Of a stretch of DNA of 64,000 nt, positions 2,387-42,207 are shown in pieces. Each line of letters starts with the position of its first letter. Positions within the stretch are counted from its first letter, which is position 1. Both the position numbers and the translations under genes were made by a program. The notes beneath the pieces were generated by a model. The model did no database searches, had not been told where the DNA came from, and saw only the letters and a list, made by a program, of their open reading frames with translations. Origin of the DNA: Jannaschia helgolandensis (GTDB lineage Bacteria; Pseudomonadota; Alphaproteobacteria; Rhodobacterales; Rhodobacteraceae); contig NZ_FNZQ01000001.1 of assembly GCF_900109285.1 (NCBI RefSeq), positions 1,207,001 to 1,271,000 on the forward strand. The letters run 5' to 3'.

Positions 2387-3783
2387 TTCAATCTCTCTTG
2401 CCAGAGCGCGACCTGCGCGCGGACATTGGCGGGGGCGGTGCCGCCATATGACGTGCGCGACGCGACCGAATTATGCACACCCAGCACGCCGAATACACCT
2501 TCGGTGATCCTATCGTTGACAGACTGCATCTGCGCCAGCGTCAGATCCGGCAGGTCGATGCCCGCATCTTCGGCCATCTTGACCAGCGCGCCGGTGGCAT
2601 GATGCGCATCGCGGAACGGCAAACCGGCTTCGCGCACCAGCCAGTCGGCCAGATCGGTCGCGGTCGAGAACCCGCCCGAAGCCGCCGCCTCCAGGTTGTC
2701 CTTCTGCGCCGTCATGTCGCCCACCATGCCGGTCATCGCGGCCAGCGCCAGCATCAGGCTGTCTGCGGCGTCGAAGACCTGTTCCTTGTCTTCCTGCATA
2801 TCCTTGGAATAGGCCAGCGGCAGCCCCTTCATCACCATCAGAAGCGCTGTCTGCGCTCCGAAGATACGCCCGATCTTGGCGCGCAAAAGCTCGGCGGCAT
2901 CCGGGTTCTTTTTTTGCGGCATGATACTGGACCCGGTCGTCCAGCGGTCCGACAGGCGAACAAAGCGGAACTGGGCCGAGGACCAGATCACCAGTTCCTC
3001 GGCCAGACGCGACAGGTGCATCGCGCAGATCGTGGCCGCGCCCAGAAACTCCAGTGCGAAGTCCCGGTCCGATACGGCATCCAGCGAATTGGCCGACGGT
3101 CGATCAAAACCAAGGGCCTTTGCCGTCATGTCGCGGTCGATGTCGAAGCCGGTTCCCGCCAGCGCGGCAGCCCCCAGCGGGCTTTCGTTCATCCGCTTGC
3201 GAGCATCCTCAAAACGCGACAGGTCGCGGGCGAACATTTCGGTATAGGCCAGCATGTGGTGGCCCCAGGTCACCGGTTGCGCGGTTTGCAGATGGGTAAA
3301 GCCCGGCATCACCCAACCGGCCCCGGCCTCGGCCTGCGACACCAGCGCCGTCATCAGTCGGGGCAGGGCGTCGATGGCGGCGTCACACTGGTCACGCACC
3401 CACATGCGAAAATCCAGTGCCACCTGATCGTTGCGCGACCGCGCCGTATGCAGGCGACCTGCGGCGGGGCCCACGATCTCGGTCAAGCGCGCCTCGACGT
3501 TCATGTGGATGTCTTCGAGCGCAGTCGAGAACCGGAACGTGCCGCCCTCGATTTCTGACAACACCGTAAGAAGGCCTTCCCGGATCGCGTCGGCATCCAT
3601 CTCGGTGACGATACCCTGCGCGGCCAGCATCGCGGCATGGGCCCGGCTGCCTTCGATGTCCTGTTTCGCCATGCGGCGGTCGAAACCGATCGAGGCATTG
3701 ATCGCCTCCATGATCGCGTCCGGGCCTTCCGCGAACCGGCCGCCCCACATCTTGTTCGAGCTGTTATCGGACGACTTCGACAT
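2383..3783 (-). CDS. argH: Argininosuccinate lyase
   Basis: ArgH performs the last step of arginine synthesis, splitting argininosuccinate into arginine and fumarate in the cytoplasm. The 466-residue protein carries the fumarase/aspartase superfamily signature [12 protein letters not shown] in the mobile catalytic loop, the TARSRNDQV substrate motif, and the N-terminal MWGGRF motif typical of ArgH. I chose the ATG at 3783 ([17 protein letters not shown]); the frame stays open upstream to 3957 but that extension is not ArgH-like. Its stop overlaps the start of a tiny lipoprotein gene. argD and argF lie about 15 kb away, so the pathway is dispersed. Confidence 0.96.
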
Positions 3784-3983
3784 GGAACGCCTCATGCTGT
3801 GGAAATTATGCCTGACGCTATACGGACTTGCCTTGACGCTCGCTACCCCCGGTGCCGTATCGCGGCGGCGGGGGTCATCACATGGCGGTGCGGTCGCGCC
3901 GCAGTGCAGCGGTTGCGCACGCAGCAGACACATTGTAGCGCTCATATGAAATATCACGCAACATTATGTCTCGGAGCCGTTCC

Positions 3984-4946
3984 ATGAGCTTTCGCACACA
4001 ACCCGCCCCCGTCGCCCGCCCGAACCGCTGCCAGCTCTTCGGTCCGGGGTCGAACACTAAGCTCTTCGCCAAGATGGCGGCGTCCGATGCGGATGTCATC
4101 AACCTCGACCTCGAAGATTCGGTCGCGCCCTCCGACAAGGATACGGCTAGGTTGAATGTGATCGAGGCTATCGGTGCGGTGGACTGGGGTAAGAAGGTTT
4201 TATCTGTTCGGATCAACGGCTTGGATACTCCGTACTGGTATCGCGATGTCGTCGATTTGCTGGAGCAGGCGGGTGCGCGGCTGGACCAGATCATGATCCC
4301 CAAAGTCGGCTGCGCTGCGGACGTCTATGCGGTCGACGCCCTCGTCACCGCCATCGAGACGGCGAAGGGCCGCACCAGACCCGTCACCTTCGAAGTCATC
4401 ATCGAAAGCGCGGCCGGCCTCGCCCATGTAGAGGAGATTGCCGCAAGTTCCCGCCGTTTGGTCGCCATGTCGCTGGGAGCCGCGGATTTTGCGGCCTCGA
4501 TGGGCATGCAGACGACCGGCATCGGCGGCACACAGGACGACTATTACATGCTGACCGAAGACGGGGCGCGGCATTGGTCCGACCCCTGGCACTGGGCGCA
4601 GGCGGCCATCGTTGCGGCCTGTCGGACGCACGGCGTTCTGCCGGTCGACGGACCCTTCGGCGACTTCTCGGATGACGAGGGATACCGCGCACAGTCGCGC
4701 CGGTCGGCGGTTTTGGGCATGGTCGGTAAATGGGCCATTCACCCTAAGCAGATCGCCCTGGCCAACGAGGTGTTCACCCCCTCCGACGCCAAGGTCGCCG
4801 AGGCGCGCGAAATCCTTGCTGCGATGGAAGAAGCCAAGGCTGCAGGGGCAGGCGCGACCGTCTACAAGGGTCGTCTGGTGGACATCGCTTCCATCAAACA
4901 GGCGGAGGTCATCGTGCGCCAATCCGAAATGATTGAGGATAATTGA
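3984..4946 (+). CDS. mcl1: L-malyl-CoA/beta-methylmalyl-CoA lyase
   Basis: This 320-residue HpcH/HpaI-citrate-lyase-beta family enzyme cleaves (2R,3S)-beta-methylmalyl-CoA to glyoxylate and propionyl-CoA, and makes or cleaves L-malyl-CoA, in the ethylmalonyl-CoA pathway for acetate assimilation. Visible motifs are an N-terminal RPNRCQLFGPGS, the NLDLEDSVAP motif with metal-binding acidic residues (about 43-52), the IMIPKVG strand and the FEVIIESAAG motif with its metal-binding Glu. The long C-terminal part (WAIHPKQ, then VYKGRLVDIASIKQAE) matches what I remember of the Rhodobacter Mcl1 paralogue rather than the Mcl2 thioesterase. The start at 3984 follows CGGAGCCGTTCC. It stands alone, divergent from argH. 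Confidence 0.92.
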   Translation: MSFRTQPAPVARPNRCQLFGPGSNTKLFAKMAASDADVINLDLEDSVAPSDKDTARLNVIEAIGAVDWGKKVLSVRINGLDTPYWYRDVVDLLEQAGARLDQIMIPKVGCAADVYAVDALVTAIETAKGRTRPVTFEVIIESAAGLAHVEEIAASSRRLVAMSLGAADFAASMGMQTTGIGGTQDDYYMLTEDGARHWSDPWHWAQAAIVAACRTHGVLPVDGPFGDFSDDEGYRAQSRRSAVLGMVGKWAIHPKQIALANEVFTPSDAKVAEAREILAAMEEAKAAGAGATVYKGRLVDIASIKQAEVIVRQSEMIEDN

Positions 4947-5030
4947 CCCTATTGCGCTTTGGACCTGGTAAGGTTCGATTCATGAATCGGTGAAAGGTTG
5001 GCCCTTGCAACACCTGCAAGGAACCCTGCC

Positions 5031-6230
5031 ATGATCGAAATCGGCACATTGATGGACTTCTTCGGATCGCTTTCGATTCTGGGAATGCTGGCAATCTTCT
5101 ATGGGTCAATCCGGCGGGCATTGCCGGGAACCTGGATCGCAGAATCGTTGCTGGGCATCTTGTTCGGTGTGGTTGCCGTGATGCAGATGAATGCCCCGTT
5201 CGAACCGATACCTGGTCTGATTATCGATATGCGAAATGTACCTATGGTGCTGGCGGGGGCCTTTCTGGGTGCGCGCGGGATGTTGCTTTGCATGGTTCTG
5301 GCAATTGCGGCACGCCTTCAGATCGGGGGAATCGGCGCTTTGGCCGGGGTTGCATCAATCCTGATCGCCGGGGCCGCTGGCGCATTCTGGAACGCGGCCA
5401 CGGCCCGCAGGACGCGGGGGCCGCTGGCGATGCTGGGTCTGGTGATGCTGCTCAGCACGCATCTTGTTTCCGTGGTGTTTCTGCCGCTTGATGTTGCGAT
5501 CTGGTTCATGGTGAATGCCGCGCCCATTCTTATCGTGTTATATCTGCTGTCGGTTCCCGTCGTTGCCGGACTGCTGGACAGGGAACGGCGTCAAATGTTG
5601 AAGGAGGCGGAACTTCGGCGCGCCGCCAATATCGGCGCATCAGACGGGCTGATGCCAAAAGAGGCGTTTGCATGGACCCTGGTGCAGGCATCGGTCACCG
5701 GAAGTCTGCGGGACGGAGCGAGCATCATTGCTATCGAATTGCGTCATCGCGGTGCCCTGGCGCGCATATGGGGGACTGAAGCCGACAAGATAGCCACAGC
5801 GGCTCTCAGTGCCCGATTGGACGCACTTGTGCCGGATGGCGGCATCGTTGGCTGGATTGGCCCCGATCAGGCAATGATGGCCATTCCCGCCATGTCCGAC
5901 CGCGCAAAGACGGACTTCCTGATGCACATCCGTCGCGAGGTTTCATCCGATCCGATCCCGGTGCCAGGCATGGCGGCGATCCGACTTTCGCTGGAGCTTG
6001 ACGCTCGCACCTATGATGCTGTTCCGCCTCTGGATCGCATTTTGACAGATATGAAGATCAAGAAAGTTGGCAAGGCTCAGATCATACCTGTCAAACGGAA
6101 GCGGGCAGGATTGGCCAAGCCAAAACGTTTTGCCGAAATGCAGACGCAGACAAAAACGGCGCGCCGAAGACGGGACGATCTTTTCGGAACCTTTGACCGC
6201 CTGCGCGAGGCAAGGTTTGGCCAGATCTAG
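5031..6230 (+). CDS. 5TM-sensor (LytS-like) protein with degenerate GGDEF-like domain
   Basis: This 399-residue protein has about six hydrophobic segments in its first 190 residues, containing a P-x-P-G-L-I-I-D-M-R-N-V-P-M-V-L-A-G-A-F-L-G stretch of the 5TMR-LYT type (the membrane domain of LytS and several diguanylate cyclases). A short helix leads into a roughly 170-residue cytoplasmic domain whose layout resembles GGDEF domains (a D-G-L-M-P-K-E-A-F start and an I-I-A-I-E-L strand). Where the active-site motif should be it reads WIGPDQA. Cyclase activity is therefore unlikely; it may be a c-di-GMP-independent sensor. The start at 5031 is preceded by AAGGAA at 8-nt spacing; a longer frame from 4998 lacks a good ribosome-binding site. 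The tail is Lys/Arg-rich. Confidence 0.7.
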   Translation: MIEIGTLMDFFGSLSILGMLAIFYGSIRRALPGTWIAESLLGILFGVVAVMQMNAPFEPIPGLIIDMRNVPMVLAGAFLGARGMLLCMVLAIAARLQIGGIGALAGVASILIAGAAGAFWNAATARRTRGPLAMLGLVMLLSTHLVSVVFLPLDVAIWFMVNAAPILIVLYLLSVPVVAGLLDRERRQMLKEAELRRAANIGASDGLMPKEAFAWTLVQASVTGSLRDGASIIAIELRHRGALARIWGTEADKIATAALSARLDALVPDGGIVGWIGPDQAMMAIPAMSDRAKTDFLMHIRREVSSDPIPVPGMAAIRLSLELDARTYDAVPPLDRILTDMKIKKVGKAQIIPVKRKRAGLAKPKRFAEMQTQTKTARRRRDDLFGTFDRLREARFGQI

Positions 6231-7001
6231 GCGCTTCCACCCCACGATTTCTGGTTTTGAAGGGCCAGATTATCGGGCACTTCCAACGTGGCCAGCGCCC
6301 CATTCGGCACCGCGTTCGCCCGGACTGACCAGGCCCTAACTGACCAGGCCCGGACTGACCAGGCCCGGACTGACCAGGCCCATCACCCGCATCTGCAATA
6401 GCGGCCACAACGCTCCGCCTTTCCGTTTCCAGGCTTGCGACGTGCGGTGAATTGCGGCCTGCGCCATCTTGATATCAGCTTCCGCCGGCCAACGACCCAC
6501 TGACCGACGACAGAACCTGTAGCGTGCCTTCCTTGGTCATGTGCCCGAAGTGCCGGATCGCAACATGAAACCGCCGCCGATCCCCGTGCGCCCGCACAGC
6601 GTTGAATTTTCGCAAGGCGCGCGATCGTCACGACCGTCTGATCCATACCGTCGATCCCCTTGTCCGGATTTTACTGGAACAGATTACGCCAGGAGAACTT
6701 GCGAGGTGCACTGGGTATAACTGTCATGGCATTGACTGCCATGTCCTGCGCATCAGGCGGGTTGCTGCGCTGTCAACGGAACGGCGTACGGCCCATGTGA
6801 CAGACTTTCGGAATATCAACCATGATCGGAATTCGATGGTTCTCGGATGAGGACGGCCGCCTGGGGAAGATGCGGGCCAGACGGAACCTGCACATATCAG
6901 CACCTGCACAGTGCGAACGACAGGTTGCCGGCCTGTCCGGTCGTTGTTGCATCGCAGGCTCATGAACGCCATATCGGTGACGAAAGATCCAGGGGCCGGA
7001 C
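6231..7001. other. 770-bp gene-poor stretch with tandem and inverted repeats
   Basis: No convincing gene is present. It holds a 15-bp tandem repeat (6321-6380), a coding-like open stretch on the minus strand (6475-6627, 50 codons with a stop upstream and no start) that could be a decayed gene, and two inverted repeats: CATGGCA-5 nt-TGCCATG at 6725-6743 and GACAGG-7 nt-CCTGTC at 6919-6937. The second lies close to the accA start and could belong to its promoter region. Confidence 0.6.
6321..6380. repeat. 15-bp tandem repeat, four copies
   Basis: The unit CGGACTGACCAGGCC occurs at 6321-6335, 6351-6365 and 6366-6380, with a variant (CTAACTGACCAGGCC) at 6336-6350. It lies outside any gene I can support, just after the sensor-protein gene. 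It may be a variable-number repeat; function unknown. Confidence 0.9.
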
Positions 7002-8252: not shown

Positions 8253-8371
8253 TCGCCGGACCTCCGCCGTTTCCGCACTGCAATGGCGTCCGTTATTGCA
8301 TGTCCACCACTGACAAAGCGACTTGGTGAGCTATAACTTTCGTCAGACTATCGAACCATTCGGGAATATCC

Positions 8372-9082
8372 ATGCGATCATCCATTCCAACGCTTCTTTT
8401 CACAGCGCTTCTGTCCGCCTGCGTGGCCGTCGAACCGACATCCACGAGGCCATCACCCGTTGCCACGTCTGCCAGCCCGGACCGGATATCCGAATCCACC
8501 GCCGCTGCGAATTTTCGGGCTGCCGTCGCGCGCGTTGAGCCGGTGGCCGAGAATTTCTGTCGCCAACGGACGTCCAATGTGAACTGCGATTTCCTGATCC
8601 GGATCGACCCGAACCGGAACGCGCCGCCGAATGCCTTCCAATCGCTGGACCGGTCGGGCCGCCCGGTGCTGACCTTCACACAATCGCTGATTGCGGATAC
8701 CCGGAACCGGGATGAAATCGCTTTCGTCATCGGTCACGAATCGGCGCATCACATCGAGCAGCACATCGCCCGTCAGCAGCAGTCGGCGGCGACCGGCGCG
8801 CTTGTCGGGGGTCTCATCGCGACCGTGGCGGGGGCCAATTCGGCGACGGTGAACGAGATCAGCCGCGTCAGCGCCGGCGTCGGCGCGCGCCGCTACTCCA
8901 AGGAGCACGAGTTGGAGGCGGACGCCCTGGGCACCGTCATCACGGCCCGCGCTGGATTTGATCCGGTGCGCGGTGCGGCGTTCTTCATGCGGATTCCCGA
9001 CCCGGGCGATCGTTTCCTGGGGACACATCCGCCCAACAGCGAGCGCATCGAGGTCGTTCGACGCACAGCGCCGGGTCTCTGA
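8372..9082 (+). CDS. M48-family metallopeptidase lipoprotein
   Basis: This 236-residue exported zinc peptidase has a signal peptide ending in a lipobox, LLSAC (Cys about residue 17), so it should be lipid-anchored in the periplasm. The zinc site is visible as HESAHH (HExxH, about residues 126-131), with the downstream third-ligand helix SKEHELEADALG (about 179-190). This is the layout of the Oma1/BepA/LoiP-type M48 peptidases that degrade misfolded envelope proteins. The C-terminus (GTHPPNSERI) is a typical M48 closing motif. It lacks the TPR domain of BepA and is closer to LoiP/YcaL. The ATG at 8372 is preceded by GGGAATATCC. Confidence 0.88.
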   Translation: MRSSIPTLLFTALLSACVAVEPTSTRPSPVATSASPDRISESTAAANFRAAVARVEPVAENFCRQRTSNVNCDFLIRIDPNRNAPPNAFQSLDRSGRPVLTFTQSLIADTRNRDEIAFVIGHESAHHIEQHIARQQQSAATGALVGGLIATVAGANSATVNEISRVSAGVGARRYSKEHELEADALGTVITARAGFDPVRGAAFFMRIPDPGDRFLGTHPPNSERIEVVRRTAPGL

Positions 9083-9159
9083 CCACATCCGTATCGGAAC
9101 CCCGTGTCTGACGTCGAAGTGACTGGTCGGCGGGGCGGCGGTTTGACAGGCAGGCGGGT

Positions 9160-9942
9160 ATGAAATCGATTGTCCTCCTGTCTGCGATGCTGATGGCCAT
9201 GGTCGTCGCGGCCGCGCCGGTCGCCGCCTGCACCGGCACGGAGACCTGCCAGCTTGGCGACCGGTCCTATTTCGTCCGGGAGCCGGACGGATGGGACGGG
9301 AAAAGCCCGCTGGCGGTTCAACTGCATTTTCACGGATGGGGACGCCAGGGACAGGTTTCCGCCCAGAGTCCACGCACCGGCGGAGCCGCCGCCGCCGCCG
9401 GTGTCCTGTTCGTGGCACCCGACGGACTGGGGCGCACCTGGGATTTTCGCAGGCCGGGGTCGCGCGACACGGCATTCGCGCAGGCCGTTCTGGCCGATAT
9501 CGCGAAACGGTATCCCACGGCGGGGCAGCCGCTGATCGTATCGGGTTATAGCTGGGGCGCTTTGATGGCTGCGCGGTTCGCCTGCGACGGTGGCGCGCGG
9601 ATTGATGCGCTGCTGTTGATTTCAGGGGCCTTTCCACCAGGAACCGAGTGTCAGGGCGCACCGCCTGCCCGCGTCAGCCATGTGCATGGCACGACAGACA
9701 CCGTGCTGGACTTTCCTTATGGGCCCGATGGCGACGAAACTCAGGCCGTCGCCATGTGGAAAACATGGATGGGCTGTGGAGCCGTAGCTCGCCGCTATGA
9801 CTGGAGGGCGGTGGAGTGGCTGACGCATGAACGTCACGAATGGGACTGCGCCCGCGGACTGGTGACGATGGACGTCCACTCGGCCGGTCATCTGATCCCG
9901 CGCGGCTGGGTTGCCCGCATTCTGCAGGAGGTCCTTGGGTGA
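9160..9942 (+). CDS. Secreted polyhydroxyalkanoate-depolymerase-like esterase
   Basis: This 260-residue protein has a Sec signal peptide (hydrophobic core MLMAMVVAAAPVAA, cleavage about residue 23). The alpha/beta-hydrolase fold shows the oxyanion segment LHFHGWG, the nucleophile elbow GYSWG (Ser about residue 130), a likely acid in VHGTTDTVLDF and a catalytic His in SAGHLIP. This arrangement matches the polyhydroxybutyrate depolymerase/LpqC-type esterase family of the periplasm or outside. Paired cysteines (CTGTETC) suggest a disulfide near the mature N-terminus. The substrate cannot be inferred; a broad esterase role is equally possible. Confidence 0.75.
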   Translation: MKSIVLLSAMLMAMVVAAAPVAACTGTETCQLGDRSYFVREPDGWDGKSPLAVQLHFHGWGRQGQVSAQSPRTGGAAAAAGVLFVAPDGLGRTWDFRRPGSRDTAFAQAVLADIAKRYPTAGQPLIVSGYSWGALMAARFACDGGARIDALLLISGAFPPGTECQGAPPARVSHVHGTTDTVLDFPYGPDGDETQAVAMWKTWMGCGAVARRYDWRAVEWLTHERHEWDCARGLVTMDVHSAGHLIPRGWVARILQEVLG

Positions 9943-10015
9943 AAATTATTCGCCGTTTTGAAACTCGGTCGACCCACCCGACGTGGCTCTGACATTGCAA
10001 CAGATTGGAAACATC

Positions 10016-10495
10016 ATGATCAGCAGGCGTTCATTGCTCACGACAGGTTCCGCGCTTGCTGCGCTGGCCGCCACTTCGACCCTTGGAGGCCGCGCGATGG
10101 CCGCGACCTTCCCGGTGACCTACACCGATGACGAATGGCGCGCGCGACTGACGGAAAATCAGTATCTTGTGCTGCGCCAGAACGCGACCGAGAGGCCGTT
10201 TTCCAGTCCCCTGCACGAAGAGATGCGCGAAGGTATCTATACCTGCGTCGGCTGCGATCAGTATGTCTATGATTCCAAGACCAAGTATTACAGCGACAGC
10301 GGCTGGCCCGCCTTCTACGAGGAAGTCGCCGAAGGCATCGAACGCGGCCCGGATCCCGTTTACGGAGAGATCCTGCCCGAAGTGCATTGTGCCAACTGCG
10401 GCAGCCACATGGGCCATGTCTTCAACGACGGACCCGAACCGACGGGCGAACGGCACTGCATCAACGGCCTGGGTCTGAACTTCATTCCGGCCTAG
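10016..10495 (+). CDS. msrB: Tat-exported peptide-methionine (R)-S-oxide reductase
   Basis: MsrB reduces R-methionine sulfoxide in proteins. This 159-residue copy starts with a twin-arginine signal ([19 protein letters not shown]), which predicts folded export to the periplasm. The catalytic domain has two zinc-binding CxxC pairs (YTCVGC and HCANC), the [11 protein letters not shown] motif, and the catalytic Cys in [11 protein letters not shown] near the C-terminus. I start it at the ATG at 10016, which places the Arg pair directly after the start; the longer frame from 9983 adds 11 residues. Its 3' end overlaps the convergent rimO stop by 14 bp. A cytoplasmic MsrA is encoded at 56.9 kb. Confidence 0.93.
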
Positions 10496-34975: not shown

Positions 34976-35783
34976 TAGCCTGCGAGATGGCGGGCGAGTT
35001 CGGGAAGCGGATCGCCACTTCCGACAGCGTCAGACATGCCTCGTCGTTTTGCCCCAGAGAGCCGAGCGCCGTGCCCAGCCCTACCAGCGCTTCGGGCGCG
35101 CGGGGGCCTTCGGGCGTGCCGGAAAACGACTCGAGATATGCGCGGGCCGCAGCGGCGTGTTGGCCGTCGCGGGCCAGCGCCTGGCCGCGGAAGAACTGTG
35201 CTTCGGCGGTCAGCGGCCCGGTCGGATAGCTTGTGACGAACTGACTGAACGCCTGCGCCGCAGCGGCATTGTCACCCGCATCCAGCGCGGATTTGGCGCG
35301 GTCAAAATCAGCCTGTTCGCTGAACGCCAACTCAGCGCCGCCGGACGTGCCACCGGTTTCGGCCGGAGGCGCGATGATGCCCGCTGCCGCTGTTCCGCCC
35401 TCGGGCGCGCCGCCCAGCGGGCCGGGGTTCGGCAGGGACGCCAGGTCGCAATCGGTCGTCAGTTCGCAAAGCTGGAACCGCAGATCCTCGATTCTTGCGG
35501 CCCCGTCACGTGATACGCTTTCGATGCGAAACTGCATCCGCTCGGTCTTTTGGGTCATGCGTTGCAGCTCGCTCTCGATCGCATTCAGGCGATCGAGAAC
35601 CGTGGACCCGCCGGTGCCGGTCGCGGGCGCACCGGTGGTGTTCAATTCACCCTTCAGTTTCTGCATCTCGACCTGCAGAACGCTCAACTGCTGGCGAATG
35701 TCGGCCAGGGTCTGGTCCTGCTGCGCGACTGCAGGCAGCCCCGACATCACTGTTAACAGAGCGACGCAGAGGACGCGCAGCAT
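34941..35783 (-). CDS. cpoB: Cell division coordinator CpoB (YbgF)
   Basis: CpoB links Tol energy state to PBP1B-driven peptidoglycan synthesis during constriction. The 280-residue periplasmic protein has a signal peptide (VLCVALLTVMSGLPAVAQ), an N-terminal trimerising coiled coil (about 22-85, IRQQLSVLQVEMQKLKGEL), a Gly/Pro/Thr linker and a C-terminal TPR domain (about 150-278) with the signature AFSQFVTSYPTGPLTAEAQF. Its ATG overlaps the pal stop (TGATG). Last gene of the canonical tol-pal set. Confidence 0.94.
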   Translation of the reverse strand: MLRVLCVALLTVMSGLPAVAQQDQTLADIRQQLSVLQVEMQKLKGELNTTGAPATGTGGSTVLDRLNAIESELQRMTQKTERMQFRIESVSRDGAARIEDLRFQLCELTTDCDLASLPNPGPLGGAPEGGTAAAGIIAPPAETGGTSGGAELAFSEQADFDRAKSALDAGDNAAAAQAFSQFVTSYPTGPLTAEAQFFRGQALARDGQHAAAARAYLESFSGTPEGPRAPEALVGLGTALGSLGQNDEACLTLSEVAIRFPNSPAISQANAARAGLGCAG

Positions 35784-36295
35784 CAGACGCCCGCCCCGGC
35801 GGCCAGCACGGTGACGGCCCGGCGGTTCTGGCTATAGCACGCTTCTGTCGAACAGACCTGAACCGGACGCTCCTTGCCATAGCTGATGGTGCGCAGGCGC
35901 GTGGCGGAAACGCCCTGGCTGATCAGGTAATCGCGGGCCGAATTCGCACGTCGGCCGCCAAGCGCAAGGTTGTATTCCCGGGTGCCCTGTTCGTCCGCAT
36001 GACCTTCGATCAGCGCGGTGTAGCCGGGGTTGCTGTTCATCCAACGGGCCTGGGCGGCAAGGACGGTCTGCGCCTCGGGAGACAGGCTGGATTGATTGAG
36101 AGCGAACAGTACGCGGTCGCCGATGGTTTGCTGGAAATAAGCCACCGAGGATGGATCGTTGGCGCTGCCGGGGACAAAACTGCCGTTTGCGCCGGCATTC
36201 AGATCGACGGCGCCGTTCGCCCCGTCTTGACCCAGGCGGCTGCCACAGGCGGACAGGGTCAGCGCGGCCAACAGAAGAAGTGCAGTCAGTTTCAT
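35783..36295 (-). CDS. pal: Peptidoglycan-associated lipoprotein Pal
   Basis: Pal anchors the outer membrane to peptidoglycan and binds TolB. The 170-residue precursor has a lipobox LSAC (Cys about residue 17) and an OmpA-like C-terminal domain (about 55-165) with the peptidoglycan-binding motif IEGHADEQGTREYNLALGGRR (Asp and Arg contact diaminopimelate). The stop overlaps the cpoB ATG and it starts 12 bp after the tolB stop, so it is within the operon. Confidence 0.97.
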   Translation of the reverse strand: MKLTALLLLAALTLSACGSRLGQDGANGAVDLNAGANGSFVPGSANDPSSVAYFQQTIGDRVLFALNQSSLSPEAQTVLAAQARWMNSNPGYTALIEGHADEQGTREYNLALGGRRANSARDYLISQGVSATRLRTISYGKERPVQVCSTEACYSQNRRAVTVLAAGAGV

Positions 36296-36306
36296 GGTAT
36301 CTACCT

Positions 36307-37629
36307 CTATCGAAGGAGCGGACCCCAGGACGGGTCCGAAGCCGCCGCGGGAGTCGCGGCACGTTGAAGATTCCGGCCAGTAATGTCGACCGTATACAAA
36401 GCAGGCGCACCATTCGCGCCCGACGTCTCGCGGGTAAACATGATCACACGACCGTTCGGCGCCCAGGTCGGCCCCTCGTCCAGAAAAGCTCCGGTCAGCA
36501 GCCGTTCTTCGGACCCGTCGGTGCGCATCACGCCAATGTGGAAGCGGCCCTCATTCTGCTTGGTGAAGGCGATATAATCGTTCTTGGGCGACCAGACAGG
36601 CGTGCCATACCGGCCCGCGCCAAAGCTGATCCGGTTACCTTCGCCGCCACTCGCAGGCATAATATAAAGCTGCTGTCCGCCCGAGCGATCAGACTCGAAG
36701 GTGATCCGGGTGCCATCGGGGCTGAAACTGGGGGCCGTCTCGATCGAGGGGGCCGTCGTCAGCCGCGTCGTCGCACCCGAGTTGAGATCCAGCAGATACA
36801 GGTCGGTATTGCCTGCCACCTCGGCGGAATACACGACGCGTCCGCCATCCGGGCTGAATCGTGGGGCGAAGCTCATGTTCTGGTCGATGCCGCCCACGGT
36901 CTGCTTTTGCAGGGTGCCGACATTGATCAACGTGACCTTGGGAAAGCCCGATTCATACCCGGTATAGATGATTCGGCTGCCGTCCGGGCTGAACCGAGGG
37001 GCCAACACGATGGAATCCGACGACGTCAGATATTGTACATTCGCCCCGTCGTAATCCATCACCGCCAGACGCTTGAGCCGTGCATCCTTGGGCCCCTGTT
37101 CCGAGACGAATACCGTGCGGCTGTCGAAATAGGGGCCTTCGCCGGTGATGCGGGAATAGGCGGCGTCGGCAACCTTGTGGGCCATGCGGCGCCAGCCATC
37201 GGCGGTCCCGACGAATTGCAGTCCCTCGCCCAGAGGTGCCTCGCTGGTCACGTCGAACAGTCGGAACTGAACGACGATGCGCCCGTCCCCCTCGGCCAGA
37301 ACGGAGCCGGTGATAAGCGCCTGTGCATTGATCGCCTTCCAGTCGGAAAACTGGATCGGGGCATCGAAAGTGCCGATACGTGAAATATGAGCGTCCCTGG
37401 GGATTTCACGGAACAGGCCGGTGTTCGTCAAATCCGCCGCGATGACCTGCGAGATGTTCTCAGCAAGTTCGGCCGCCTCCGCGTTCCGCGCCACGAAAGT
37501 CGGCACCGCAAAGGGCAGAGGCGATATGTTCGGATCGGTGATGATGATTTCCAACTGCGCCCGTGCGGCACCTGTCAGGAATGCAAGCGACAGCAGAGCG
37601 GCGCAGAGACCTTGATACAATCGTTTCAC
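36307..37629 (-). CDS. tolB: Tol-Pal system beta-propeller protein TolB
   Basis: TolB is the periplasmic protein that shuttles between Pal and TolA. The 440-residue precursor has a signal peptide (cleavage after about residue 24), an N-terminal alpha/beta domain (about 30-165) and a six-bladed beta-propeller with WD-like repeats such as [17 protein letters not shown] and [17 protein letters not shown]. The sequence is close to family length and intact. It follows tolA by 118 bp; a secondary promoter may lie in that gap. Confidence 0.97.
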
Positions 37630-37747: not shown

Positions 37748-38929
37748 TCACCGAACCCGCGATTGCGTCGGATCGAAGGTGATCGTGATGTTTTTCCACT
37801 GTGCATAGCTTTCTTCGGGCAAGTCATAGCCCTGATTCTTCACCGAACACTGGATAATCGCGGTCTTGGCCCGTTCTAATGCGATTTGCTGGGACGCCGC
37901 GGTGCCGCCCGACGCATTTTTCACCCGGATCGTACTGGAGATGGGAAAACCGTCGGGCCGCATTTCGAACGACACCGTCATTACGGTCCGCATGACATCG
38001 GTCGAGACGGCACCCAGATCCCAGCAGCTTTGCACGGCGAGACGGAAGCCTTCCTCCTGTCCCGGAGAAAGTTGCGGGCCTGGATCGCCGGGCGAGGCGG
38101 GTGTGCCGCCACCCAGAGCTTCGGCCAAAGCCGCGGATGTATCGAATGTGCGGGGTTCTTCGGCGGCGGTCGCCGTTTCAGTCGGTCGGGGTTCCGCCGG
38201 AGCGGCGGGTCGTGCCGGAGCGGCGGGCGTTTCGGCCACAGCAACTTGCGGACGCGCGGGCCGTGACGGAGGCCGTGACGATGTCTCGGGGGCATTCGAC
38301 GGTTGTTCGGCGGCCGCCGGGATATCCGCTTCGGTGATGATACGCGGTGCGCTCTCCTCGGGCGCGGTCGGCGTTTCGGCAGGTTCGACCGGCTCCTCCG
38401 GTTTGACGTCCGACGGGGCAGGCGGGGCCTCGACCGTTGGCGCGGTTTCCGTCAGAGGCGGCGGGGCCGGGGCAGGCGTGGGCGACACGCGTTCCGCGGC
38501 GCGCGGGGTGGGCCGTGGGCCGGGTGCCGCATCCGGCGCATCGGCGGGCGGGGTCGGCGCGTTCGGTGCATCCTGCGTCACTTCGGTCTGTGGCAGGACC
38601 AGTTCTGCCACGTCCGGCGTATCGTCAGGCTGGGTAGGAGTCGGGGTCACGGGCGTCGGTGCAGGCTCAGGGGGCGGTGCTTCTTCGGTGGGAGTAGGCG
38701 CCTGAGATGTTTCGGGTTGTTCGGGTGCCGCAGGTGCTGCCGGAGCGGGCGCGGCAGGGGCCGGAGCCGCCGACACCAGTGCGTCGAATTCGGCACTGGA
38801 AATGACGCTGACGGCCGCAATCTGCAACTGGTCGTCTTCAACGGGGTTGAAAAGCCCGGCAACCATGGCCCAGACGATCAGGCCTGCATGGGCCGTGCCC
38901 GAGAGCGCGACTGCCGTGCGCCGTTCCAT
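37748..38929 (-). CDS. tolA: Tol-Pal inner-membrane energy-transducing protein TolA
   Basis: TolA transmits proton-motive-force energy from TolQR to the outer membrane. The 393-residue protein has one N-terminal transmembrane helix (about residues 9-26), a very long Pro/Ala/Glu domain (about 50-290) that replaces the Lys/Ala-rich helix of E. coli TolA, and a C-terminal TonB/TolA-like domain (about 300-393; GLAVQSCW-type start, VSFEMRPDGFPISSTIRV, IIQCSVKNQGYDLP). The Pro-rich linker is usual in alphaproteobacteria. The ATG abuts the tolR stop (TAGATG). Confidence 0.92.
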   Translation of the reverse strand: MERRTAVALSGTAHAGLIVWAMVAGLFNPVEDDQLQIAAVSVISSAEFDALVSAAPAPAAPAPAAPAAPEQPETSQAPTPTEEAPPPEPAPTPVTPTPTQPDDTPDVAELVLPQTEVTQDAPNAPTPPADAPDAAPGPRPTPRAAERVSPTPAPAPPPLTETAPTVEAPPAPSDVKPEEPVEPAETPTAPEESAPRIITEADIPAAAEQPSNAPETSSRPPSRPARPQVAVAETPAAPARPAAPAEPRPTETATAAEEPRTFDTSAALAEALGGGTPASPGDPGPQLSPGQEEGFRLAVQSCWDLGAVSTDVMRTVMTVSFEMRPDGFPISSTIRVKNASGGTAASQQIALERAKTAIIQCSVKNQGYDLPEESYAQWKNITITFDPTQSRVR

Positions 38930-39415
38930 CTACTGATCCGCCGTGCCGGTGCCATCCAGCGTCGGCCCGCCCGCATCCGTGACCAGCCCGATATTTCGGA
39001 ACCCGCCCGCGTTCAAAGCACCCATCACCACCATAATGTCGGAATATGGCACGCTTCCGTCAGCGCGCAGGAACACCCTGTCGCTCTGACGTTCGCCGGC
39101 GATCGCCTGCAATCGCGTGACCAATTCGTCGCGTGGCACTTCCTGAGACCCGATCTGCACGAGACCATCCGCTGCGACCGTTATGGCCAGCGGCTCCTCG
39201 TCTTCCTGAGGCAGGGGCGTGGCGGCAGTCTGGGGCAGCTCGACGGGAACGCCCGCCGTGAGCAGGGGGGCCGCGACCATGAAGATGATCAGCAGCACCA
39301 GCATCACGTCCACGAAGGGCGTGACGTTGATTTCGGACATCGGTGCGCCGCTGCTGCTGCGCCTGCGGCGTCGCCCGCCACTGCCGCCGCCGGACTGGAT
39401 CGTTCCCGCCCCCAT
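38930..39415 (-). CDS. tolR: Tol-Pal system proton-channel subunit TolR
   Basis: TolR with TolQ forms the proton-driven motor of the Tol system. The protein (161 residues from ATG 39415) has the single transmembrane helix preceded by APMSEINVTPFVDVMLVLLI, in which the Asp is the proton-carrying residue, and an ExbD-type periplasmic domain (FLRADGSVPYSDIMVVM). The start is fixed by the 1-nt spacing to tolQ; the in-frame extension back to 39499 would lie inside tolQ. Confidence 0.96.
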   Translation of the reverse strand: MGAGTIQSGGGSGGRRRRRSSSGAPMSEINVTPFVDVMLVLLIIFMVAAPLLTAGVPVELPQTAATPLPQEDEEPLAITVAADGLVQIGSQEVPRDELVTRLQAIAGERQSDRVFLRADGSVPYSDIMVVMGALNAGGFRNIGLVTDAGGPTLDGTGTADQ

Positions 39416-39416
39416 G

Positions 39417-40115
39417 TCAGGCCGCGTCCAGCTGGCGCGACAGGATCGTGGCGAATTCGTCCGCAAAGGCTTCGTAGTTACCGGTGATGCGATCCGCATC
39501 GCGGGTCAGCTTGTTATAGAAGACGACCGCCGGAATGGCGGCCAGAAGGCCCAGCCCCGTGGCCAGCAAGGCTTCGGCAATGCCGGGAGCCACGACTGCG
39601 AGATTGGTGTTCTGACTGATGGCGATCTGTTCGAACGCGTTCTTGATGCCCCAGACCGTGCCGAACAGGCCGACGAACGGCCCGGTTGAGCCGACTGTGG
39701 CCAGAAAAACGAGCCCGGATGTCAGGCGGTCGCGTTCCTTGGCGATGGCCACATCCATGGTGCGATCGATGCGCGACTGGGTGCCCGCGATCAGGCCGCC
39801 GTCATCGCGGTGGCTGCGCGACCATTCCTGCATTGCCGAGGCGAAGATGCGCTCCGACGCGGATTTGGGCCGGTCGCCGATCTGGTCATAGAGTTCGTCC
39901 AATGGCTCGCCCGACCAGAAAGCCCGGTCGAAGGAGGCGGCATGGTTGCGCGCGCGCCGGAACTGCACGACTTTCTGGATCAGCACGGCCCAGACCCAGA
40001 TCGAGGCTGCAAACAGCATGACCATAACGATCTTCACGATGAAGGTCGCACGCAGGAACAGCGCCCAGAGCGAGAAGTCGATCTCGCTGGCGGCTGCCAG
40101 TACTTCGGTTTCCAT
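39417..40115 (-). CDS. tolQ: Tol-Pal system proton-channel subunit TolQ
   Basis: TolQ is the three-TM channel subunit homologous to ExbB and MotA. The 232-residue protein shows helices at about 20-45, 135-155 and 170-195 with the conserved LATVGSTGPFVGLFGTVWG and APGIAEALLATGLGLLAAIPAV segments, including the conserved Thr/Ser-Gly positions. First gene of the tolQRAB-pal-cpoB string; an unrelated TagO-like gene and ybgC lie upstream rather than ybgC alone. Confidence 0.97.
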   Translation of the reverse strand: METEVLAAASEIDFSLWALFLRATFIVKIVMVMLFAASIWVWAVLIQKVVQFRRARNHAASFDRAFWSGEPLDELYDQIGDRPKSASERIFASAMQEWSRSHRDDGGLIAGTQSRIDRTMDVAIAKERDRLTSGLVFLATVGSTGPFVGLFGTVWGIKNAFEQIAISQNTNLAVVAPGIAEALLATGLGLLAAIPAVVFYNKLTRDADRITGNYEAFADEFATILSRQLDAA

Positions 40116-40207: not shown

Positions 40208-41419
40208 TCACTTCTTGGGCGGAATGCCGCGCGTATAATCGTTGAGCCATCTTTCGCCGAGCAACAGTCTTGGCGCGCTTTCGACGTCGGCGGGTCTTTC
40301 CCTCGACCTGTTCGATGCGTTGACTGTCACGACGACGGGTGTCGAAGCCTGCGGGTCCGTCCCGCCATCGCCTTCATGACGGCCTGCCGCCCCGTCCGAC
40401 GGCTGACCATCCAGGTGTACGATGTCGATGGATGCGCCAGCCCCAGAGCGTGCCGCAAGCAGGCTGGATGGCGGCCTGTCTGGTCCGGGCTGATCGCCGC
40501 CGTCGTTCGCCGCCTGCCGCGCTGCACCCGGCCCTATACCTCGCGACGCGGCCCCTTCGGCTGCGGTCGACGGATGGTCGCCGGATATTGCGTTGATCCC
40601 GTTCAAAGCCGACCCATCATCGCCGTGATCATCGCGCGATTTGCCTGCGCTTGTTGTCACACCGCTCTCGCCGGTGTGGGGATCGTGTTCAGACCCCACA
40701 GTTATCGCTGCGGGATCTGGTGCCTCCCATGGGGCGACATCCGACCAGTTGCAGGCTGCGCTGAGTGTCGGCAATGCCTCGGTCAGACCGGTCAGCGGAA
40801 ATCGCATCTCGCTGGTCAGCCCATCGGCGTCCGTGAAACGAAGATGGAGCTTGTCGGCGCGGATCAGGTTTTCGATGAGGGTGCGGGCGGGGCGATACTG
40901 CCAGTACCCGAATGCCTCGCCGTAACTGTCGACCTTCATATAGGCGGTGGTGGTGGTGGCAGTATCCAGACGCTGCTCCACCTGCCATCCATTGGGGTCG
41001 CCGGGTGGTGTGGCACAATCGTGGGCGATATAGACCGCTGTCCTGTCCTGAAGGCAACGCAGCATCAATGTCGCCCTGCGCCGTGGTCCGCAGGGTAATG
41101 GCCGATCGCTGGAAACGGACAGGAACACATTGGTCAGATTATCGAAATCCGACACTTCGGATCGCAAAGTCCACCCACTGGTGTCGACTGTGTCCCCGAC
41201 TGGGGCTGCCGTCGTTTGCACCGTGGTTGGCGGAGGACCGTCCGACATTGTCTCCGGGGTCGCGACCGGGGTAACGGGCGGGGTGCCGACGGGCAGGGTC
41301 GAGGGCATGGTATTCCGCGGCACCGCGCCCTCGCCGACCCCGCCCGAGATCGAATATCCCAGCGATGCCCCTGACAGCGTGGCAACGAGATAGGCGGCGG
41401 CGCGGAAGGGAAGGGGCAT
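40208..41419 (-). CDS. Orphan TagO/VasI-like exported protein with long acidic tail
   Basis: This 403-residue protein starts with a hydrophobic signal-like segment (PFRAAAYLVATLSGASLGYSI), then a Pro/Thr linker (30-75). A domain at about 78-225 closely resembles the TagO/VasI family associated with type VI secretion: GWTLRSEVSDFDN, ATLMLRCLQDRTAVYI, LIRADKLHLRFTDADG and the closing LTGLTEALPTLSAACNW. The remaining 180 residues are low-complexity, Gly/Asp/Ala-rich and probably disordered, ending WLNDYTRGIPPKK. No other T6SS gene is nearby. It sits between ybgC and tolQ, where canonical operons have nothing. Role unknown; location suggests envelope biology. Confidence 0.75.
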   Translation of the reverse strand: MPLPFRAAAYLVATLSGASLGYSISGGVGEGAVPRNTMPSTLPVGTPPVTPVATPETMSDGPPPTTVQTTAAPVGDTVDTSGWTLRSEVSDFDNLTNVFLSVSSDRPLPCGPRRRATLMLRCLQDRTAVYIAHDCATPPGDPNGWQVEQRLDTATTTTAYMKVDSYGEAFGYWQYRPARTLIENLIRADKLHLRFTDADGLTSEMRFPLTGLTEALPTLSAACNWSDVAPWEAPDPAAITVGSEHDPHTGESGVTTSAGKSRDDHGDDGSALNGINAISGDHPSTAAEGAASRGIGPGAARQAANDGGDQPGPDRPPSSLLAARSGAGASIDIVHLDGQPSDGAAGRHEGDGGTDPQASTPVVVTVNASNRSRERPADVESAPRLLLGERWLNDYTRGIPPKK

Positions 41420-41805
41420 GGCAGTCGACTCGCTGTTTTGCGGGACCCTGCCAGATTGCCCTTAAAAAACCCTTAGGACCGAGCGCGACCGTCGAGCGAT
41501 CCTTCCTCTGCACATCCGTGAATTCTGCGTCGGACGTCCGCCGGGCAAGCGTTGCACGGGTGGCGTCAGTTGATGACGGTCGCAGATCATCGATTGTCCC
41601 GTTTCGGCCTCGACGGGGAGGCATTCGCCACCAGTACAGATCAGCATCATGCGCGTGCAACTTCGTCAGTCCGGCCCGTTCGAACGGCCCGTTTGATCAG
41701 CCGGCAGGAAACTCCGCCATCGGAACGGCGATCAGCTCGTGGCCGCACCAGCATCATCGCAGCGATGCGCCGCCCTCGGGCTGTCGTGGGGTGTCGCGGC
41801 GGACG
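41420..41805. other. 386-bp gap between the TagO-like gene and ybgC
   Basis: No gene, RNA or clear repeat is seen. Short open frames exist on both strands but none has a ribosome-binding site or a recognisable product. It may contain a promoter for the TagO-like gene, or the remains of a deleted gene, since canonical ybgC-tolQ spacing is short. Confidence 0.5.
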
Positions 41806-42207
41806 TCATGGGACAAGATCCGTGATTTCGGCAGGCAAGCGGCGCGGTCGACCGGACAGGTCCATGCAGACAATGGTCACAGTCGCGAGGAACAGGGGCC
41901 TGCCATCGCGCATCACCGTCTGTTTCATCACGAAGCGCGCCGCAGTAACGTCGACCATCGTGGTTTCGACCTGAAGCGTATCGTCATAGCGCGCGGGCCT
42001 CAGGTAATCCGCTTCGACCCGCGAAACGGCAAAAACCAGCCCTGCGGACCGCATCGCGTCCTGATCCACCCCTGCGGCCCGGACCATTTCGGAGCGGGCG
42101 CGTTCTATGAACTTCAGATAATTGGCATAATAGACGATGCCGGCCAGATCGACATCCTCGTAATAGACGCGGATCGGCCAGACATGCCTCGGATCAGTGG
42201 CCGTCAT
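41806..42207 (-). CDS. ybgC: Tol-Pal-associated acyl-CoA thioesterase YbgC
   Basis: YbgC is a cytoplasmic hotdog-fold thioesterase found beside tol-pal in most proteobacteria. The 133-residue protein shows the signature YYEDVDLAGIVYYANYLKF, with the catalytic Asp in EDVD, and RVEADYLRPARYDD. Its ATG overlaps the stop of the upstream 217-aa gene (ATGA), so those two are coupled. The usual direct follow-on to tolQ is interrupted by the TagO-like gene. Confidence 0.95.
   Translation of the reverse strand: MTATDPRHVWPIRVYYEDVDLAGIVYYANYLKFIERARSEMVRAAGVDQDAMRSAGLVFAVSRVEADYLRPARYDDTLQVETTMVDVTAARFVMKQTVMRDGRPLFLATVTIVCMDLSGRPRRLPAEITDLVP

What the first reader, a model, noticed from the sequence alone, without database searches (positions are those of the whole stretch)
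40208..41419. TagO/VasI-like gene inserted between ybgC and tolQ
The ybgC-tolQRAB-pal-cpoB order is among the most conserved in proteobacteria. Here a 403-aa exported protein whose core resembles the type VI secretion accessory TagO lies inside it, with no other T6SS gene in the window, plus a 180-residue acidic disordered tail. TagO domains may have a general envelope role. A Tol-Pal partner or regulator is a reasonable guess.
Basis: partly seen in the sequence, partly recalled or inferred. Interest (0 to 1): 0.65.

Follow-up and report, generated by a model that had tools for sequence, protein, structure and literature searches.

The report
TagO-like protein in Tol-Pal operon
Most Jannaschia bacteria examined carry, inside the gene cluster that keeps the outer membrane attached during cell division, an extra exported-type protein whose core is named after a toxin-injection machine that this organism appears to lack, which suggests that the core is a general cell-envelope part recruited to the Tol-Pal system.

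Summary
The 403-aa ORF at 40208-41419(-) matches Pfam VasI/TagO (30.1 bits, cut-off 26.5) and lies between ybgC and tolQ; the genome has one VasI hit and no detectable TssC. The genus is Jannaschia. In 14 of its 20 held genomes a homologue follows ybgC on the same strand, in 13 of them directly before tolQ. T6SS does not explain it: TssC occurs in 5 of 14 carriers and 2 of 6 non-carriers, and in the family in 6 of 35 VasI-like carriers against 95 of 359 others. The predicted beta domain is closest to IalB (Z 11.4) and to the N-domain of MotY (Z 9.6, in one of two models), a protein needed to recruit flagellar stators, which belong to the same motor class as TolQR. Outside Jannaschia, two genomes encode a fusion of VasI core, peptidoglycan-binding domain and TolA C-terminal domain; in one draft genome it lies directly before tolB-pal. 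This links the core to Tol-Pal a second time. Best reading: a periplasmic, membrane-tethered, dispensable Tol-Pal accessory. A passenger gene remains possible. No physical interaction is shown.

The parts
40208..41419 (-). 403-aa VasI/TagO-core protein gene between ybgC and tolQ
   Evidence: ORF and translation; PF11319 30.1 bits; homologues at the same place in 14 of 20 Jannaschia genomes, window included
41354..41413 (-). N-terminal hydrophobic helix (residues about 3-22), read as an uncleaved membrane anchor (inferred; no signal-peptide program was run)
   Evidence: AF2 helix 3-16; a loose SG-small-residue pattern in 10 of 10 core-type and 1 of 4 full-type homologues
41180..41353 (-). Pro/Thr-rich linker (residues about 23-80), in place of the Cys-containing TagO N-terminal segment seen in 4 of 14 homologues
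   Evidence: alignment A1, cysteine positions, low pLDDT
40727..41179 (-). VasI/IalB-like beta domain (residues 81-231) with Trp83, Cys110, Cys122, Cys135, Cys223, Trp225
   Evidence: block means of pLDDT 90-97 for residues 81-230; fold matches; in the 14 homologues Trp83, Cys110, Cys135, Cys223, Trp225 are invariant and Cys122 is lost only in G167; dN/dS 0.17-0.47 in nine pairs
40211..40726 (-). C-terminal tail (residues 232-403), mostly disordered, ending in a short predicted helix and a GERxL motif
   Evidence: low pLDDT; composition; motif shared with G156
41806..42207 (-). ybgC-like thioesterase gene
   Evidence: PF13279 and PF03061
39417..40115 (-). tolQ, 92 bp after the stop codon of the finding
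   Evidence: PF01618 E 2.3e-35
38930..39499 (-). tolR (the listed ORF overlaps tolQ; the true start may lie inside it)
   Evidence: PF02472 E 3.6e-27
37748..38929 (-). tolA
   Evidence: place; C-terminal domain aligned with other Jannaschia TolA and with the fusion protein
36307..37629 (-). tolB
   Evidence: PF04052 and PD40
35783..36295 (-). pal
   Evidence: PF00691

Best explanation
It is a lineage-specific, dispensable accessory of the Tol-Pal system. Shown by computation: a protein with a well-folded VasI-class beta domain, encoded in the tol gene cluster of most Jannaschia genomes examined and not tied to T6SS. Inferred: the N-terminal helix stays in the inner membrane beside TolQ-TolR-TolA, the folded domain stands in the periplasm on a Pro-rich stalk and docks on the Tol machine (TolA, TolB or Pal) near peptidoglycan, helping to place or hold the TolQR motor or its TolA-TolB-Pal train, much as the periplasmic T-ring protein MotY does for the related PomAB motor. 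The long tail would widen its reach.
For: Synteny: 14 of 14 carriers in the genus have the gene next to ybgC on the same strand, 13 of 14 directly before tolQ. Constraint: dN/dS 0.17-0.47 over 148-149 core codons in nine pairs; invariant Cys and Trp residues. Fold: IalB 3dtd Z 11.4, rmsd 3.5, 136 aligned; 8z5n_B Z 10.7, rmsd 3.3, 126 aligned; MotY 2zf8 Z 9.6, rmsd 3.6, 122 aligned; next row Z 5.8. Passages of reviews say that MotY uses its N-domain for the basal body and its C-domain for peptidoglycan (PMC3872333), that stator units are not recruited without MotX or MotY (PMC7990780), and that TolQR is a MotAB-like motor (PMC9389320). Second Tol link: fusions of VasI core + PG_binding_1 + TolA C-terminal domain in G656 and G798, the last domain 58% identical over 99 residues to the end of G656's own TolA, in a branch of the core's tree apart from Jannaschia (G656 tested, 100/99); in G798 the fusion gene lies directly before tolB, pal and a CpoB-like gene. 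Not T6SS-linked: TssC in 6 of 35 VasI-like carriers against 95 of 359 others.
Against: Six of 20 genus members lack it, so Tol-Pal works without it. VasI-like genes in other genera of the family are not near tol in the loci examined: 0 of 28 with up to 1.5 kb flanks, 0 of 14 in wider stretches. The second model, of a VasI protein from another genus, again gave IalB (Z 11.3), but MotY was not in its list, so the MotY analogy rests on one model. The window protein lacks the peptidoglycan-binding domain of MotY and of the fusions. The fusion matches over nearly its full length in 2 of 17 genomes of its family; tol adjacency is on one contig of one draft assembly, and in G656 no tol gene was found on the fusion's contig. 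The shared place in Jannaschia counts as one inherited event. No interaction data exist.
Confidence: 0.45

Rival explanations
1. Passenger: an ordinary stand-alone periplasmic TagO-type protein with a function of its own landed once between ybgC and tolQ in the Jannaschia ancestor and was kept there by descent; it has no dealings with Tol-Pal.
For: TagO-like proteins occur at other loci in the family (35 of 394 genomes match the profile). The 14 Jannaschia copies form one clade (99/97), so the shared place counts as one event. Absence in 6 of 20 points to repeated loss or late gain. Proteins of the IalB family, which share the fold, occur in 10 of 10 genomes tested.
Against: A second VasI-core lineage is fused to the TolA C-terminal domain and in one genome lies beside tolB-pal. 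A passenger does not explain the form with hydrophobic helix and stalk found in 10 of 14 copies.
Confidence: 0.33
2. Guard: an exported Tol-binding shield or decoy against agents that use Tol proteins as a way in (bacteriocins, filamentous phages), which would explain patchy presence and variable linkers and tails.
For: Patchy presence (14 of 20); variable linker and tail beside a conserved core. That Tol proteins serve as entry routes is general knowledge, from no call.
Against: The core is under purifying, not diversifying, selection. No defence library was searched and no defence gene was sought nearby.
Confidence: 0.1
3. A true T6SS accessory (VasI/TagO) that has moved away from its cluster.
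For: Pfam name and score.
Against: No TssC in the own genome; TssC in 5 of 14 genus carriers and 2 of 6 non-carriers; 6 of 35 against 95 of 359 in the family; TIGR03360 equivalog cut-off missed by far.
Confidence: 0.04

Closest known systems
VasI/TagO/EvfG family (PF11319, TIGR03360)
   Same: residues 96-225 match above Pfam's cut-off; four of the 14 genus homologues also have the Cys-containing N-terminal segment with CWDR
   Different: no TssC in the genome; first third of the profile not matched, helix and stalk instead; long tail; far below the equivalog cut-off
IalB, invasion-associated locus B (PF06776; 3dtd)
   Same: predicted fold, Z 11.4 and 11.3 for two models
   Different: no sequence link: hhalign probability 0.7%, no Pfam IalB match at E 0.1
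MotY of the Vibrio polar flagellar motor (2zf8)
   Same: predicted fold of its N-terminal part, Z 9.6; both go with a motor of the MotA/TolQ class
   Different: no OmpA-like C-terminal domain; sequence similarity not tested; seen with one of two models
Auxiliary proteins of the tol cluster (YbgC, CpoB)
   Same: encoded in the tol gene cluster
   Different: found at this place in one genus only among the genomes examined; predicted anchored beta domain

Membership tests
VasI/TagO (PF11319) | sequence match above Pfam's gathering score | tested here: met
   30.1 bits against 26.5, profile positions 66-184 only
VasI/TagO (PF11319) | N-terminal Cys-containing segment (profile positions 1-65) | tested here: not met
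   not matched in the window protein and no Cys in its first 70 residues; present in the G149, G155, G160, G162 homologues
T6SS-associated VasI (TIGR03360 equivalog) | score above the curated equivalog cut-off | tested here: not met
   21.1 against 124.2 bits
T6SS-associated VasI (TIGR03360 equivalog) | T6SS in the genome | tested here: not met
   no VipB/TssC in G000; other tss genes not searched
IalB (PF06776) | sequence match to the family | tested here: not met
   no IalB match at E 0.1; hhalign probability 0.7% against ten IalB proteins
IalB (PF06776) | same fold | tested here: met
   predicted model, Z 11.4, rmsd 3.5 over 136 residues; other-genus VasI model Z 11.3, rmsd 4.0 over 138
MotY | N-domain fold | tested here: inconclusive
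   Z 9.6 for the window model; not in the list for the second model
MotY | C-terminal OmpA-like peptidoglycan-binding domain | tested here: not met
   no OmpA match in the window protein; tail of low pLDDT
Tol-Pal component | encoded in the tol gene cluster | tested here: met
   same strand, between ybgC and tolQ in 13 of 14 carriers; co-transcription not tested
Tol-Pal component | binds a Tol or Pal protein, or a mutant has a tol phenotype | not testable with these tools
   needs experiments

The most novel reading that the evidence does not exclude
The VasI/TagO core, IalB and the N-domain of MotY are one periplasmic module that adapts ion-driven 5:2 motors and envelope machines to the cell wall. 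It has been recruited to Tol-Pal at least twice, as the anchored ybgC-tolQ protein of Jannaschia and as a core + peptidoglycan-binding + TolA-C fusion that in G798 may stand in for TolA itself; its T6SS role is only one use.
Probability: 0.22. Interest if true: 0.78.

Novelty: new variant of a known kind. Interest (0 to 1): 0.56.

Why it matters
PF11319 carries the name of a type VI secretion part. Here 29 of 35 family genomes with such a core lack the TssC marker, so the name misleads, and two separate arrangements tie the core to Tol-Pal. If confirmed, this gives a testable handle on how TolQR-TolA-TolB-Pal is positioned in alphaproteobacteria, and on what TagO does in T6SS.

Tried and rejected
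T6SS accessory: tested through TssC in the own genome, the genus and the family, and rejected. Homology with IalB by sequence: hhalign of the Jannaschia alignment with ten IalB proteins gave probability 0.7%; only the fold agrees. Solved relatives by sequence: six weak glutamine synthetase matches, best E 0.17, taken as chance. The first scan of named genomes with the single protein found nothing; the scan with the alignment gave seven named Jannaschia loci. MotY did not appear in the second model's list. blastp of the window TolA C-terminus against the fusion found no match in its C-terminal domain (best chance match E 8.4 elsewhere in it); the profile comparison did, and 50 shuffled decoys reached probability 1.0% at most. 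TslA (PMC10564176, PMC11731876; passages) was looked at as a T6SS contact-sensing protein; the term search found no TagO or VasI in those texts, so no link is claimed. Literature: the listings showed no paper on a VasI/TagO protein in a tol cluster; most of those papers were not opened, and the library holds open-licence PMC papers only.

Limits and rows left out. The family search scored at most six first-look candidates per genome, so 35 of 394 is a lower bound; its 394 genomes are taken to be the same draw as (same number, same wording; the six TssC-positive carriers were also tested directly). Of its 34 matches in other genera, 28 came with loci and were checked for tol neighbours; three of the other six were checked in wider stretches; three were not checked (the second match of G186, G278, G230). 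The sub-threshold or partial VasI matches L007, L092 and L093 were not followed. The class search found VasI in 12 of 385 genomes. Start codons of the 13 homologues in A1 were chosen by me (a start before the hydrophobic stretch). In the tree, G153 lacks ybgC and the upstream gene, and some outgroup rows are under half filled. The alignment behind the second model (A3) holds seven Jannaschia rows among 14, so the two models are not wholly independent.

Not settled: whether G798 has tolQ, tolR or a separate tolA.

Full report
What is there. The ORF at 40208-41419 on the minus strand is 403 codons long and lies between a ybgC-like thioesterase gene and tolQ, followed by tolR, tolA, tolB and pal on the same strand (TolA by place). 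Its residues 96-225 match Pfam PF11319 (VasI) at 30.1 bits, above the cut-off of 26.5, but on profile positions 66-184 only. The T6SS-specific equivalog TIGR03360 is missed by far, 21.1 against 124.2 bits. The own genome, 99.56% complete, has one VasI match and no VipB/TssC.

Whose genome. The window therefore belongs to the same genus; its species name was not obtained.

Synteny. Of 20 genomes of the genus, window included, 14 encode a homologue. In all 14 it follows ybgC on the same strand, and in 13 of 14 it directly precedes tolQ; in G160 tolQ starts about 1.9 kb further on, with other open frames between. Of the six without it, five keep ybgC close to tolQ, at 184, 232, 264, 402 and 506 bp between matched segments, and in G153 ybgC is not within 1.5 kb of tolQ. 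Of ten loci from other genera of the family, seven have ybgC 110-334 bp from tolQ with no insert, and in three ybgC is not within 1.5 kb.

Descent. On a tree of four neighbouring proteins, presence and absence need four changes within the genus. Counting the absence in the outgroup, one ancestral gain with four losses and a later gain with two losses and two more gains are equally short (my count); the shared place and the single Jannaschia clade of the protein (99/97) favour one gain. One result complicates the story: the four copies with the full TagO N-terminus group together in the gene tree with modest support (85/64) but fall in two places in the neighbour tree, so parallel change or exchange within the genus is possible.

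Anatomy. Ten of 14 homologues, window included, have an N-terminal hydrophobic stretch with a small-residue motif and then a Pro-rich linker; the other four (G149, G155, G160, G162) have a start that reads like a signal peptide and a Cys-containing segment with CWDR. No signal-peptide or membrane-helix program was run. Trp83, Cys110, Cys135, Cys223 and Trp225 are invariant in the 14, and Cys122 is lost only in G167. The core is under purifying selection: dN/dS 0.17-0.47 in nine pairs, with dS above 1.2 in seven of them, so the ratios are rough. The tail is mostly disordered in the model. That it is translated rests on an open frame, which is weak (45 of 5000 shuffles also stay open), and on an ending shared with G156.

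Fold. The AlphaFold model has block means of pLDDT 90-97 for residues 81-230. The structural comparison gives IalB at Z 11.4, chain 8z5n_B of an 'LPHT ring' at Z 10.7 and MotY at Z 9.6 over its residues 11-149, with the next row at Z 5.8. I take 8z5n_B to be MotY, which no call confirms. Foldseek's matches at E 0.001 or better are three chains of IalB. A model of a VasI protein from another genus, which scores 61.7 bits against PF11319, again gives IalB at Z 11.3, but MotY is not in its list. The IalB likeness is thus firm; the MotY likeness rests on one model.

T6SS. TssC is present in 5 of 14 carriers and 2 of 6 non-carriers in the genus. In 394 genomes of the family it is present in 101; of the 35 that match the profile of this protein (a lower bound), 6 have it, against 95 of the other 359, if both calls drew the same genomes. 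The name 'type VI' therefore misleads here.

The Tol link outside Jannaschia. Four family proteins of 423-496 aa that were scanned have a VasI-like core (18.6-19.5 bits, below Pfam's cut-off) and a PG_binding_1 domain above its cut-off; their N-terminal parts read like coiled coils, which was not tested. In another alphaproteobacterial family, G656 and G798 encode proteins of 567 and 547 aa with a VasI core (23.0 and 35.7 bits, the second above the cut-off), PG_binding_1 and a C-terminal domain of TolA. Pfam does not name that last domain above its cut-off (TonB_C at E 0.11 in G656, none in G798). It is 58% identical over 99 residues to the end of G656's own TolA, which lies between tolR and tolB, and aligns with Jannaschia TolA at hhalign probability 97%, where 50 shuffles reach 1% at most. 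In G798 the fusion gene (L160 1863-3506) is followed on the same strand by tolB (3616-4959), pal (5152-5649), a TPR gene taken for cpoB (5796-6920; TolA_bind_tri at E 0.0019, below its cut-off) and, further on, ftsH (8366-10372). Of 17 genomes of that family, two match the fusion over nearly its full length. On the G656 contig that holds the fusion no tol gene was found. G798 is a draft of 230 contigs, 96% complete and 4% contaminated, so the adjacency rests on one contig.

How it may work. MotY's N-domain associates with the basal body and its C-domain with peptidoglycan (PMC3872333, passages), and stator units are not recruited without MotX or MotY (PMC7990780, passages). TolQR is a MotAB-like motor that acts through TolA on TolB and Pal (PMC9389320, passages). 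I therefore infer that the Jannaschia protein is tethered beside TolQRA and that its folded domain helps to hold or place the Tol train at the wall. Computed: gene, place, predicted fold, constraint, lack of T6SS linkage, and TolA-C fusions elsewhere. Inferred: membrane anchoring, disulphides, contact with Tol proteins, and direction of effect.

Verdict. A real, conserved, genus-level addition to the tol cluster with a VasI core; a role in Tol-Pal is the likeliest reading but not shown. A passenger gene is the main rival.

Noticed in passing
L160 1863-6920 (G798 contig C116): VasI core + PG_binding_1 + TolA-C fusion gene directly before tolB, pal and a cpoB-like gene, in the usual place of tolA; with the fusion as query no other TolA-C domain was found in that genome except a short copy at a contig end.
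   Followed up: partly
L163 (G798 contig C216, minus-strand start) and L160 3404-3502: The end of contig C216 repeats 99 bases of the 3' end of the fusion gene exactly and then diverges, as at the border of an inserted element or an assembly break.
   Followed up: partly
L070-L077, L079, L107, L113-L116: Proteins of roughly 420-500 aa in the window's family with a VasI-like core and a C-terminal stretch that in the four scanned (L107, L113, L115, L116) is a PG_binding_1 domain; function unknown.
   Followed up: partly
L040 and L042 (G153, G160), upstream of tolQ: Both carry, on the opposite strand, what reads like a radical-SAM, spore-photoproduct-lyase-type gene upstream of tolQ; not checked with a family search.
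   Followed up: no
window 41420-41805: The gap between ybgC and the gene is 386 bp here against 66-85 bp between matched segments in L010, L011, L012 and L017; its content was not explained.
   Followed up: no
window 37748-38929: TolA has no Pfam match at E 0.1, so TolA of this group can be missed by automatic annotation.
   Followed up: no
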